A DNA stretch of 64,000 nt from Geosiphon pyriformis. Lineage: Eukaryota; Glomeromycota; Glomeromycetes; Archaeosporales; Geosiphonaceae. Shown in pieces: positions 51,912 through 59,581 of the stretch. Every line of letters begins with the position of its first letter. Positions within the stretch are counted from its first letter, which is position 1. The notes beneath the pieces are model-generated. The model worked only from the letters and a program-made list of their open reading frames with translations, was not told the DNA's origin and made no database searches. Location: positions 613,400-677,399 of the forward strand of contig JAAOMT010000372.1 of assembly GCA_016748015.1 (NCBI GenBank), given 5' to 3'. Position numbers and translations under genes: made by a program.

Positions 51912-53622
51912 ATCTGAAGTATTGTTTGCATTGTATTTTTTTTCCTGTATCACCTTTTCGCTTGTCATTTTTTCTTGTGTCTTCTTACATCAAGTCCACA
52001 ATGGAACCCAAAAATTATAGTACTATTAGAAGTATTTTGAAAAGAGAACAAGGCGAAAAAATTGCTCTTACCAAAAACTATCTGAGAATATTTAGATAAG
52101 GGAATCATTGCCTATGAGATTTATCAAGAAAGGTTATCAAATGTGCATCGGAAGATTCAAAAGTCAAAGAAAAAAAGAGTGAAAAATTCCACGAGTATAC
52201 ATATTATGGAGTATTTTTTAATACACAATACACTATGTAGAAGAAATTTAACAAAACCAAACAAACTGCATAAAATATAAATATGATGAATGACAAAAAC
52301 TTAACTGAATATGAAAAGGCATTTTATATTTTAAAAGTTGGATGCAGTTGTGGTTGTTTTTTCAAAGTTTTCAAGAAAGCATTTGTTGAGATTTAAAACT
52401 TTTCAAGTGTTTTTTAAGCCTGAACAAATCATTTTTTTAATGATTTAACTTAAAATTATAAGTAATAAATTTATAAATATTAATTACCTTTTAAAAAAAA
52501 GCTTTTATTAATGAAAAAAATTATACTGTTGAAACTGTAATTTATTTTTTTGCCAGAAAACTTACTTGAATATGTTAAAGATTAATTGAGCTTATTTTAA
52601 AATATAAAAAGTAATTTAATAAAAAGTAATTTTATATTATAATACTATAATAATATAAAATAAAACCAATATAAAGATGGCTATTATAATAAAAATTTAT
52701 TCTTAAATTACATTAAAATTTACAACTTACTTAGTTTAATAAAAAGTATTAATTAAATTATTTAATAAATTATTTTTTATTTATAAAAATGGATGAATCT
52801 AGTTGTAACAATCTGTTACATAAAACAACCTCGAAAATAGCTTTAATTAAGATCGAAAATTTTATTAAATTTTAAAAAAATAATATGTAATAATAATGTG
52901 TATTAATTATTTTTATTGGACAAATTAAAGTTGAATTATTAATTTTACTAGAAATAAATACAATGTTTAGTTATTACAAAGTAAGAAATAAACAAATAAT
53001 TAACTAAATTTTACTTAATTTTAATATTTTGTACTATTGTGTCTTAAAAGATCATATTTACAACAAGTGTATTTTGTGTATAGTTTTTTTTTTTTAGCAG
53101 ACTTATAACATTTGGTTTTTGGGTGTTATTTACATTATAATACTAATAGATTTTCAACTTGCTCAAGCTTATTTTCTTTATTGGCATTATTAATTTAATT
53201 GTTCTTTAGGACTTGGTCTTAATTTTGAAATATAAGCACTACTTTTTTATGTTGGCCAATAAATTGTCTTAATTATATTATTATTTACTATAATTGTTAT
53301 ATACAATAGTAAATTGAACAGTCTGTTATGTAAATTTTTACATTTTATCATATTTTTGTTTTTTTTGTATTACAAGACATAAAACATTAGTAATAATTTT
53401 AAATACAGTTAAAAAATTTGGAATTACTATTTTGTTAAAAGAATTTTTTGCAGTTTTTTGATTTGTAAAGCAAAAAGCTTTAGTAACTAAATTATTGTCT
53501 TTTTTTTATTAGTATACTATTATGAAAGTATTATTTAAATATAAAATTCCACGATTTTTGATTATAATATTACTTAAAAATAATAGTAATAAACAATATT
53601 ATGAGATATACTAAACAAATAT
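51912..53622. other. 3' flank then AT-rich spacer
   Basis: To about 52400 composition is intermediate and probably includes the 3' UTR. After that it is AT-rich. Around 53041-53480 there is slightly more complex sequence that may be a dead DNA transposon, but I can recognise no transposase motif. No gene is called. Confidence 0.5.
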
Positions 53623-57836: not shown

Positions 57837-57874
57837 CGTCGATCACTGTGCCATATATGGCACAGTGATCGACG
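57837..57874. repeat. 38-bp perfect palindrome
   Basis: Each half is CGTCGATCACTGTGCCATA; the second half is the exact reverse complement with no spacer, and the next base on each side no longer pairs. It stands in AT-rich DNA 67 bases before the first Mollicutes-like codons. Possible roles: a cruciform, a fold-back element, or a transposon terminal repeat pair fused head to head. Confidence 0.85.
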
Positions 57875-57940
57875 AAACAAATAAACTCACGTGGCACAAT
57901 ATCAAATCACGTGATTTTCTGAGGTTGTTACAAATCTATT

Positions 57941-58310
57941 AATTCTAAAAAAATTACAGAATTACTTTGTTTTTATTAACAAAAAAAATTATCCTTACTT
58001 TTACTTAAAAATTGTGAATCCCTAAAAATCTTAGACTGCAGAAAATTTTCTTGTTTTATTGATTGTTGCAGATAAACCAAATCTAAAAACTATTTCTTGA
58101 AAAGAAAATAATTTCCAAGAGTTAATAATAGAAGATTGCTCTAATTTAGAACAATTAGATTTTAGTAATCAAAGTATTTATTTTGAAGAAAGTGGTTATA
58201 AAATCGAATGTGAATTGTTAATTGATACTATTAACAATAGCAATCTGAAAAATGTTTTTTATTCCAAGTATAGTAAAAATATTCCTGATTACAAACCTTT
58301 TCCAAACTAG
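57941..58310 (+). pseudogene. Broken LRR-like gene fragment using TGA as Trp (Mollicutes-like)
   Basis: Two overlapping frames give leucine-rich-repeat-like units. 57941-58075 reads LLLLKNCESLKILDCRKFS (one TAA upstream). 58071-58310 reads KPNLKTIS-W-KENNF, then QELIIEDCSNLEQLDFSNQ, with Trp from TGA at 58098-58100. The pattern 'L..L...NC..L..LD.S.N' repeats about every 22 residues. A one-base shift near 58300 joins the next frame (58301 onward). The 5' end is missing. Neither TGA-as-Trp nor this protein type fits a nuclear fungal gene; Mollicutes code 4 does. Whether it was ever expressed here is unknown. Confidence 0.6.
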
Positions 58311-58816
58311 AAAAAGTAAAGATTGGTAAAAGAATTATAATAGGTAATGAACAAGCTTACTTTGTTGAAAGGATTGATATTCTCGGAATTCGCAATACTG
58401 AAAAAATAGAAACAATACTAGCTAATCCTAATAATTACTCTTGAGAAGACTTGATGAAACTAGAGAAAAAAGATTTATACGAAGTATTAGTCGAATTAAG
58501 ATTAAAACTAATCAACTTAGAGAGAAAGAAACTCAGAGAAGAATTAACAAAAGAAAAAACCAAAGCTGATTTACCACTGGTTGAAAAAAAAATACCAATT
58601 CCTCTCTTAGAAAAAGACAATTTACCAATAGAAGATAATCCGAAAATACCAACACCCCAAGAAGAACCAGTTCCGGAACCTGATTATAAAAAAGTATACT
58701 CCGAATTACAAGCAGAAATAGAAAATCTGAAAAAACAGCTACCAAAAAAGGAAGAAATAGCAGTAATATGAAATAAAATTACTAGTTCTGCCCTTAGTCA
58801 AGAAAAAAAGCAATAA
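58301..58816 (+). pseudogene. Coiled-coil, proline-rich Mollicutes-like frame with TGA as Trp
   Basis: With code 4 this is 171 codons: SKLEKVKIGKRIIIGNEQAY, then ILANPNNYS-W-EDLMKLEKK (Trp is TGA at 58442-58444), a Lys/Glu coiled coil (EVLVELRLKLINLERKK), a proline stretch (KIPTPQEEPVPEPD) and a second coiled coil. It ends AVI-W-NKITSSALSQEKKQ (TGA at 58769-58771) before TAA at 58814. With the standard code only 58451-58768 stays open. It probably continues the LRR fragment after a frameshift, giving one surface or effector-like protein. No TGG codon occurs in the frame. Confidence 0.65.
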
Positions 58817-58840
58817 TTAGATAATTTACTAAATGCTAAA

Positions 58841-58853
58841 GAAAGAGGTATTA
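58841..58853 (+). promoter_or_regulatory. Shine-Dalgarno-like site before a GTG start
   Basis: GAAAGAGGTATTA precedes GTG at 58854; the purine core AAAGAGG is spaced about six bases from the start codon. This is a bacterial, not fungal, translation signal and supports a bacterial origin. Purine runs are common in this DNA, so the weight is moderate. Confidence 0.45.
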
Positions 58854-58979
58854 GTGAAAAGTAATAAGCCAACTAATTATTTTCCTTATCTCTTGGGAAT
58901 AGGAATAATGATAATATCAGTAATGTTATTGGTTTACTTAGTAGGAAAAACAAGAAGAGAAATCAACTTGAAAAAATAA
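58854..58979 (+). CDS. Small single-pass membrane protein (Mollicutes-like)
   Basis: Forty-one codons from GTG: a short polar start (KSNKPTNYFPY), one hydrophobic helix (LLGIGIMIISVMLLVYLVG), then a basic tail (KTRREINLKK). Basic residues after the helix suggest the N-terminus faces outward. It overlaps or closely follows the coiled-coil frame in operon fashion. The frame is intact and contains no Trp, so it does not itself test the code. Family unknown. Confidence 0.5.
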   Translation: MKSNKPTNYFPYLLGIGIMIISVMLLVYLVGKTRREINLKK

Positions 58980-58998
58980 TTATGGTTAATGCTCAAAC

Positions 58999-59199
58999 AT
59001 GATTATAAACAATAAGTTTCCTAACCAAAGAGATTGAGAAATAATTAACAAAAAAATTGTAATTACTTTGGAAGATTATTTCCAGACCTTTTCCATATAC
59101 CACTGAGATTTTTTTGGTGAGCTTTTATAGTTTTCACTCCCACATGATTACGTTCACATTCCTTTCTATTCTCCCGAATATTTCATTCATTATATTTAA
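58999..59199 (+). pseudogene. Mollicutes-like frame with two TGA-Trp codons and one amber stop
   Basis: Reads MIINNKFPNQRD-W-EIINKK and then VITLEDYFQTFSIYH-W-DFF, with Trp from TGA at 59035-59037 and 59104-59106. TAG at 59128 is followed in the same frame by FSLPHDYVHIPFYSPEYFIH up to TAA at 59197. The aromatic-rich, well-mixed composition on both sides of the amber is unlike chance AT-rich translation. Unknown family; probably a dead gene. Confidence 0.6.
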
Positions 59200-59581
59200 C
59201 CAATTGATAAAAAAGAAAAAAAAAACACAGGAGAAATAATTAATCGCTAGCATAGAAGTTAAAAGTAAATAGTTCTTATATATGAAAGAATTAAAAAATA
59301 AGGATTTTGATCAGGTTTACTTTGTCTGGTTTTGTTTCAGCACGCCTCATATAATAATATACATCTAAATAAATGTTTGAATTAAATATTTCTTAAAATT
59401 ATTTTTTATTTATATAAAATTTTTCATGATTTAATTAATTTTTGTAATTAATATTATATATATTTTGATTATTAGAATTATCGGGTGGTCAAAATAATTA
59501 GAATCATATATTTTTGGAGTGAGATCTTGCTTTACGTTCTCTTGTTATTCTTCTTCTTCTTCTTCATTTCATATTCTTCCA

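What the first reader, a model, noticed from the sequence alone, without database searches (positions are those of the whole stretch)
57941..59199. Cluster of Mollicutes-code genes (TGA = Trp) inside a fungal contig
Seen: consecutive frames whose five in-frame TGA codons (58098, 58442, 58769, 59035, 59104) all fall where Trp makes sense (S-W-K, S-W-E-D, I-W-N, D-W-E, H-W-D-F), with no TGG. Content is bacterial in style: LRR units, Lys/Glu coiled coil, a tiny membrane protein with a Shine-Dalgarno-like site, operon spacing. Known: AM fungi host Mollicutes-related endobacteria that use code 4, and gene exchange between the partners has been reported. Inferred: an endobacterial segment moved into the nuclear genome and is decaying (frameshifts, TAA, TAG), or the contig is chimeric. 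A bacterium-to-fungus transfer caught while still recognisable would be notable.
Basis: partly seen in the sequence, partly recalled or inferred. Interest (0 to 1): 0.9.

Follow-up and report, generated by a model that had tools for sequence, protein, structure and literature searches.

The report
Endobacterial gene inside code-switched fungal transposon
The stretch is the decayed half of a bacterial-type surface-protein gene carried inside a jumping-gene family in a fungal genome, and that family is written in a genetic code (TGA meaning tryptophan) that the neighbouring fungal genes do not use, which suggests DNA passing between an endosymbiont and its host nucleus.

Summary
The segment is one broken gene, not an operon: the C-terminal part of an LRR, coiled-coil, tail-anchored protein with relatives in Racocetra persica records and unnamed contigs.

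Diverged copies lie on many contigs, several just downstream of a DUF7869 gene. The window has a DUF7869 remnant at 52.25-52.60 kb and a terminal motif at 59.31 kb.

Unexpected: the DUF7869 family reads TGA as Trp. At five conserved Trp sites, 30 copies show 76 TGA, 46 TGG, 6 TAA, 0 TAG; eight copies without other in-frame stops have 26 TGA, all at Trp. dN/dS is 0.07-0.30 in unsaturated pairs. Fungal ORFs in the window use TGG.

Best reading: transposons with endobacterial cargo passed between a code-4 endosymbiont and the nucleus. Nuclear recoding stays open; the transposase's codon usage is nearer to fungal.

The parts
52001..52096 (+). Remnant of element ORF1 (MEPKNYSTIRSILK...), the small ORF upstream of the DUF7869 gene
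   Evidence: Same start peptide at L043, L048 and L056
52252..52601 (+). Remnant of the DUF7869 transposase-like gene; TGA at 52530 is at the conserved Trp103 site
   Evidence: tblastn of L046/L038 ORF2 against the window, E 2.4e-17
57837..57874 (.). Perfect palindrome (two 19-nt arms) left of the truncation point
57900..57950 (+). Dispersed repeat at the left border of the cargo gene
   Evidence: eight of 17 matches are short matches (76-91%) to this border
57947..58310 (+). LRR part of the cargo gene, from about residue 311 of P0019; frameshift and TAA inside
   Evidence: tblastn code 4
58277..58816 (+). End of the LRR region plus Pro/Glu coiled coil; in-frame TGA at 58286, 58442, 58769
58833..58979 (+).
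   Evidence: P0021 alignment reaches 58963; C-termini of P0002, P0003, P0021
59043..59268 (+). Downstream segment shared with C132 (89%), C77 (84%) and C106
59312..59345 (+). Right terminal motif of the element (5 mismatches to the 34-nt motif)
   Evidence: 85 related sites in own genome, 0 with the reversed control

Best explanation
The stretch is the decayed C-terminal part of one bacterial-type gene for a tail-anchored LRR and coiled-coil protein. It lies as cargo in the right half of a decayed transposon (about 52.0-59.35 kb) of a family with inverted terminal motifs, a small ORF1, a DUF7869 transposase-like ORF2 and a variable cargo ORF. Shown: copies are spread over the fungal assembly; cargo and transposase genes are written with TGA as Trp; near-intact copies carry a signature of purifying selection under that code; the fungal ORFs in the window are not written that way. 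Inferred: the cargo comes from a code-4 Mollicutes-related endobacterium; the elements (or their source copies) were expressed and selected in that bacterium; they entered the nuclear genome repeatedly, where full-length products cannot be made and copies decay towards AT. In the window the rest of ORF2 and the N-terminal half of the LRR gene are missing, with about 5.3 kb of AT-rich sequence in their place.
For: Homology of the whole read segment to P0002, P0003, P0019-P0023 and P0025. LRR genes directly downstream of DUF7869 in C257, C117, C346 and C132, and in C106 and C314 with more decay; C257/C117 share DUF7869 plus LRR as one unit (79.6% over 1849 bp, then LRR pieces at 85%). Trp codons: LRR sites 8/12/41/178: 6 TGA, 4 TAA, 1 TAG, 0 TGG; DUF7869: 76 TGA, 46 TGG, 6 TAA, 0 TAG, 2 others of 130. 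TGA-only stops in 28 of 100 DUF7869 matches and TAG-only in 0, against 13 and 15 of 143 for the DDE_3 control. dN/dS 0.07-0.30 in the 20 of 45 pairs with finite dS. Cargo codon usage GC3 0.18-0.25 and AGA-rich, fungal ORFs GC3 0.31 and CGN-rich. Inverted pairs of the terminal motif around DUF7869 copies on C294, C355, C309, C266, C280. Chitin-synthase matches without stops, 2 of 2, and TGG in fungal ORFs. In two Racocetra models the residues round conserved Trp178 are missing, as if a TGA had been skipped as an intron (inference).
Against: DUF7869 ORF2 codon usage is nearer to fungal (CGN 0.63 against 0.65; GC3 0.37 against 0.31), unexpected after long residence in a Mollicute; overall RSCU correlations do not separate the groups. 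At two other family Trp sites own LRR copies have no Trp-like codon: TAC or ambiguous TGA at Trp406 in the window, and TAT in C106 and C314 and TTA in the window at the anchor Trp. ORF1 ends with a basic NLS-like run. No Shine-Dalgarno site seen before the ORFs. No named Mollicutes protein in the hits shown; no DUF7869 match in plasmids or phages, nor in viral contigs by a scan with two short patterns; GTDB was not scanned with DUF7869. DUF7869 in an endobacterial genome was not shown. Five of 12 loci (C355, C307, C77, C402, C312) gave no DUF7869 Trp-site hit. The left terminal motif was not found in the window (best 13 mismatches). Target-site duplications could not be read.
Confidence: 0.5

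Rival explanations
1. The elements are ordinary residents of the fungal nucleus and the fungus (or the element) decodes UGA as Trp in these messages, by a suppressor tRNA or programmed readthrough; bacterial genes were captured as cargo.
For: Large copy number (100 matching stretches, 85 terminal motifs), short motif pairs like MITEs, fungal-like codon usage of ORF2, NLS-like ORF1, selection signature.
Against: Window fungal ORFs use TGG only (biased because they are open frames; the chitin synthase QRRRW Trp is TGG); the best ORF2 copies have 3-4 TGA and one cargo frame has 9, so weak readthrough would give almost no product; no tRNA in 69 sequences scanned, though the whole genome was not; DDE_3 transposase copies show no TGA excess.
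Confidence: 0.3
2. The TGA codons are decay products of TGG in dead copies of a standard-code transposon.
For: AT-rich, decaying copies; TAA at 6 of 130 Trp-site codons.
Against: 76 TGA and 0 TAG at Trp sites, where G-to-A decay should give both (log10 p about -22.9 at equal rates, treating related copies as independent, which they are not); eight copies with no other in-frame stop have 26 TGA, all at Trp; dN/dS 0.07-0.30 in finite pairs.
Confidence: 0.03
3. The window segment is a chimeric assembly or endobacterial contamination.
For: MRE contigs are known in fungal assemblies (PMC11423566, parts 1-2 of 3 of the text read).
Against: Diverged and AT-drifted copies on many contigs, up to 2.7 Mb, one with a protein-kinase ORF beside the element; the one bacterial-SSU-model match (5 of 277 candidates scored) is 1827 bp and fits the fungal 18S, and no XerC/D-type integrase was found while 14 of 14 controls rang.
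Confidence: 0.03
4. The DUF7869 elements come from the mitochondrion (code 4 in many fungi, recalled), not from a bacterium.
For: Same code; AT-rich.
Against: LRR, HAD-like and coiled-coil cargo are not usual mitochondrial gene types (recalled); no test with mitochondrial contigs could be made (cox1 search did not complete).
Confidence: 0.05
5. Plain pieces of endobacterial DNA, without a transposon role, were inserted many times, and the DUF7869 neighbourhood is coincidence.
For: Five of 12 loci examined (C355, C307, C77, C402, C312) gave no DUF7869 Trp-site hit.
Against: Same DUF7869-LRR order at several loci and one shared unit; the right terminal motif follows the LRR gene in C132, C355, C314, C307 and the window.
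Confidence: 0.06

Closest known systems
Mollicutes-related endobacteria (Candidatus Moeniiplasma) and their gene exchange with Glomeromycotina
   Same: Code 4 (recalled), LRR-protein genes shared between MRE and Glomeromycotina records, small AT-rich genomes (PMC10507103 section 10 and passages; PMC11423566 parts 1-2 of 3)
   Different: The direction described there is fungus to bacterium; the HGT survey of R. irregularis states that its donor bacteria are not known MRE or AMF endobacteria (PMC5982333, passages). Here the DNA sits in the fungal assembly, multi-copy, in a transposon
DUF7869 (Pfam PF25273) proteins
   Same: L015, L009 and L046 frames pass the Pfam cut-off of 26 bits (42.9, 31.4 and 59.4)
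   Different: TGA used as Trp, downstream bacterial-type cargo; a 146-aa frame of L010 gave no Pfam hit. No paper in the held library has the name
Endosymbiont inserts in host chromosomes (Wolbachia and others)
   Same: Bacterial genes in a host nuclear genome (PMC6469114 seen in a search listing only)
   Different: Those are plain inserts in the standard code (recalled); here carried and amplified with a TIR-type element
Code-4 DNA in nuclear genomes: NUMTs and endogenous mitoviruses (recalled)
   Same: TGA at Trp sites in a standard-code nucleus
   Different: Those are dead single inserts (recalled); here a family with many near-intact copies and paired termini

Membership tests
DUF7869 (PF25273) | Profile score above Pfam's cut-off | tested here: met
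   L015, L009 yes; L010 frame no; L046. The window's own remnant was assigned by tblastn to L046/L038 only
TIR DNA transposon | Inverted terminal sequences in pairs around the genes, dispersed | tested here: met
   for the window only the right end was found
TIR DNA transposon | Target-site duplication | not tested
TIR DNA transposon | DDE/RNase H-type transposase | tested here: inconclusive
   profile search of PDB gave only two chance-level hits (E 0.38 and 0.45, mitochondrial ribosomal protein); no fold predicted
Code-4 (TGA=Trp) genes | TGA confined to conserved Trp sites, interchangeable with TGG | tested here: met
   for DUF7869; for LRR copies at sites 8, 12, 41, 178. Not met for the window's own cited TGAs 58098, 58442, 58769
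MRE LRR/tail-anchored protein family | Sequence homology and architecture | tested here: met
MRE LRR/tail-anchored protein family | Member encoded in a Mollicutes genome | tested here: inconclusive
   best organism-named hits are Racocetra persica records on short contigs; GTDB and viral scans with A1 found none, but the patterns used included Trp, which as TGG would miss code-4 genes
Endosymbiont-to-nucleus transfer | Location in host chromosome | tested here: met
   large contigs, with fungal genes in the window and a kinase ORF beside one copy; read-level proof not testable here

The most novel reading that the evidence does not exclude
A transposon family that shuttles between kingdoms: DUF7869 elements that are functional only where UGA is Trp (in the Mollicutes-related endobacterium) and repeatedly jump, with bacterial cargo genes, into the host fungus's nuclear chromosomes.
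Probability: 0.4. Interest if true: 0.95.

Novelty: new variant of a known kind. Interest (0 to 1): 0.85.

Why it matters
A multi-copy transposon family in a fungal nuclear assembly, under purifying selection in a genetic code that the host's own genes do not use, is hard to fit into present ideas. Either mobile DNA moves regularly from an obligate endobacterium into host chromosomes, carrying bacterial genes, or a fungal nucleus decodes UGA as Trp for its transposons. Both are testable with existing genomes and strains. TGA at Trp sites also gives a built-in tag for endosymbiont-derived DNA that standard annotation may miss or splice around.

Tried and rejected
Tried without result: homologues of the 179-aa frame alone (only itself; the length limit shut out the 650-aa relatives); GTDB scans and viral scans; plasmid and phage tblastn with P0002 (11 and 13 records, all below 60% identity and none covering 80% of the query) and with ORF2 (none); Pfam and NCBIfam for the HAD-like and coiled-coil cargo (no hit above a cut-off; weak coiled-coil hits for one L043 frame) and PDB for the HAD-like one only (best E 0.31; a phosphatase, outer membrane protein P4, at E 0.98); the HAD label is mine from motifs, recalled. 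A tree of DUF7869 copies: cargo classes not monophyletic, low support, long decayed branches; not used. Rfam found nothing in the window.

Rejected: TGG decay, chimera, operon.

Full report
Setting. The window is part of contig C308 (920.8 kb) of a 124.7-Mb, 406-contig assembly. It carries fungal genes: chitin synthase, RasGEF, RALGAPB-like. The 18S-like locus has one mismatch to each of the recalled AMF primers AML1 and AML2 and four to AM1, which fits an arbuscular mycorrhizal fungus but does not name it; the species is not known to me. A search with the bacterial SSU model scored 5 of 277 candidates and gave one match, 1827 bp long at 422 bits, which fits the fungal 18S. The XerC/D-type integrase family gave none while 14 of 14 controls rang. 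So I see no sign of an endobacterial contig in this assembly.

What the segment encodes. Under table 4 the window gives frames 58035-58310 and 58277-58816. A composite query of these and of LRR pieces from locus L015 found P0002 (672 aa, E 3.3e-68), P0003 (E 1.5e-52) and P0004 (E 1.5e-42) among 17 hits; the other 14 are weaker LRR proteins (E 2e-16 or more), and only the 8000 best candidates were scored. The window frame alone matches P0002 at E 4e-23. A search with P0002 showed 120 of 335 hits; the nearest with an organism name are three partial models of Racocetra persica, an AM fungus, on contigs of 1.6-3.7 kb. The full-length relatives are single proteins with LRRs, a Pro/Glu-rich coiled coil and a C-terminal membrane anchor. 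tblastn places the window from about residue 311 of P0019 (57947) to the end of the anchor of P0021 (58963).

The cited TGA codons. Codon 58098 aligns with Cys in six homologues and Val in one, 58442 with Leu in four and Ser in one, 58769 with Arg in two, Gln in one and a gap in one. Sister copies have TGT (C355), TGC (C314) and TAT (C257) at the first, and CGA (C106, in the window's register, beside an indel) or TAA (C314, C307) at the third. These are best read as nonsense mutations. A further TGA at 58286, at the frame change, can be aligned with a Trp of P0003 and P0019, but in the other frame that Trp meets TAC. The code-4 case must be made elsewhere. At Trp sites 8, 12, 41 and 178 of P0002, own-genome LRR copies have TGA at six (C117 sites 8, 12, 178, and 41 in another frame; C355 41; C257 178), TAA at four (C355, C314, C307 178; C257 41), TAG at one (C346 41) and TGG at none. 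Four of these eleven rest on a Trp in one homologue only (C117 41, C257 41, C314 178, C346 41), and C314/C307 are partly duplicates. At the anchor Trp, C106 and C314 have TAT and the window TTA. In two Racocetra models the residues around Trp178 are missing, as if a TGA had been skipped as an intron (inference).

Copies and surroundings. A DNA search with the segment gave 17 matches in the own genome, eight of them to the left-border repeat, and a protein search with P0002 gave 16 matches on nine contigs. In C257, C117, C346 and C132 the LRR gene or its remnant follows a DUF7869 gene in the same direction; C106 and C314 show the same order with more decay. C257 and C117 share DUF7869, junction and LRR pieces (79.6% over 1849 bp, then 85%). 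Seven of 12 loci gave DUF7869 Trp-site hits; C355, C307, C77, C402 and C312 did not. The window has an ORF1 remnant at 52001 and a DUF7869 remnant at 52252-52601, whose one readable Trp site (52530) is TGA.

The unexpected result. The DUF7869 family has 100 matching stretches in the genome, some of them pieces of one copy. I examined the 30 loci the tool returned (L037-L066). ORF2 has five conserved Trp sites; their 130 readable codons are 76 TGA, 46 TGG, 6 TAA, 0 TAG and 2 others. Eight copies (L038, L039, L041, L043, L046, L048, L052, L055) have no TAA or TAG and no TGA elsewhere in 4459 aligned codons, and 26 TGA all at Trp sites; against a second reference L041 shows one TAA, and some of the eight have frameshifts that the alignment steps over. 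Uninterrupted table-4 frames of 532-612 aa occur in L039, L043, L044, L046, L047 and L048. TGG decay should give TAG as often as TGA. dN/dS is 0.07-0.30 in the 20 of 45 pairs with finite dS; the other 25 are saturated, and some pairs use short alignments. Control: 143 matches of the DDE_3 transposase family show TGA-only, TAG-only and TAA-only stops in 13, 15 and 13; the 100 DUF7869 matches show 28, 0 and 11 (typed). Seven ORFs in the fungal-gene regions of the window have 29 TGG and no TGA, a count biased by being open frames, but the chitin synthase QRRRW Trp is TGG, and both chitin-synthase matches in the genome have no stop.

Cargo. Downstream of ORF2 lie different code-4 ORFs: a HAD-like protein (label from motifs, recalled; no Pfam hit) with 34 matches, of which I count 21 within about 2 kb of a DUF7869 match; a coiled-coil protein (L046, 5 TGA, 0 TGG; 4 matches); or the LRR protein. 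L040 holds another frame with 9 TGA and 0 TGG. Cargo codon usage is AT-rich and AGA-rich (GC3 0.18-0.25; AGA 0.56-0.80 of Arg); ORF2 is nearer to the six fungal ORFs counted (GC3 0.37 against 0.31; CGN 0.63 against 0.65); overall RSCU correlations do not separate the groups cleanly. This is the main evidence against long residence of the transposase in a bacterium.

Element ends. Near-intact copies share a left end just upstream of ORF1 or ORF2 with a TATAGGATTATC-type repeat, whose inverse lies at the right end in L067. An outer 34-nt motif occurs 85 times in its 31-nt form at up to 3 mismatches (0 with the reversed control), in inverted pairs 6-9 kb apart around DUF7869 copies on C294, C355, C309, C266 and C280, and in pairs about 0.4-0.5 kb apart on C81, C122, C298 and C370. 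The window's copy of this motif is at 59312; no left partner was found. Target-site duplications could not be read.

How it most likely works. Shown: dispersed elements with inverted ends; genes written with TGA=Trp; a selection signature; decay in many copies. Inferred: selection acted where UGA is Trp. The simplest such place in an AM fungus is the cytoplasmic Mollicutes-related endobacterium, and the bacterial-type cargo points the same way. Nuclear copies would then be arrivals that cannot make full-length protein and decay. The rival is UGA decoding in the fungus itself, favoured by ORF2 codon usage, the NLS-like end of ORF1 and the copy number. I put the two at about 0.5 and 0.3.

Literature. 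Exchange between MRE and Glomeromycotina, including LRR proteins, is published as transfer from host to MRE (PMC10507103, section 10 and passages). MRE contigs hidden in fungal assemblies are published (PMC11423566, parts 1-2 of 3). A survey of R. irregularis says its bacterial donors were not known MRE (PMC5982333, passages); PMC10386755 was seen in passages. My searches for MRE with gene transfer or transposons, code and DUF7869 listed nothing whose title or abstract start describes this; the library lacks most subscription papers, and the two 2015 PNAS papers on MRE genomes were not read.

Noticed in passing
G000 contigs C81, C122, C298, C370: Short (about 0.4-0.5 kb) inverted pairs of the terminal motif, like MITEs of this family.
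   Followed up: no
L012:6338-9888 and L013:6319-9867: The last 3.55 kb of contigs C314 and C307 are 99.5% identical and end alike, so a duplicated or haplotypic contig end.
   Followed up: no
window 57837-57874 and 57900-57950: Perfect palindrome and a dispersed repeat at the left border of the truncated cargo gene.
   Followed up: partly
L040:2652-3158 minus: Code-4 frame of 169 aa with 9 TGA and 0 TGG beside a DUF7869 copy; no Pfam match.
   Followed up: partly
L043, L048 ORF1: The small ORF1 ends in or contains a basic run (KKRK/RKRRKV) that resembles a nuclear localisation signal.
   Followed up: no
Some back-translated scan patterns contained Trp, which as TGG only would miss code-4 relatives.
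   Followed up: no
P0020, P0025 (Racocetra persica models): Gene models lack the residues round a conserved Trp, as if TGA codons were spliced out; similar errors may be common in AMF annotations.
   Followed up: partly
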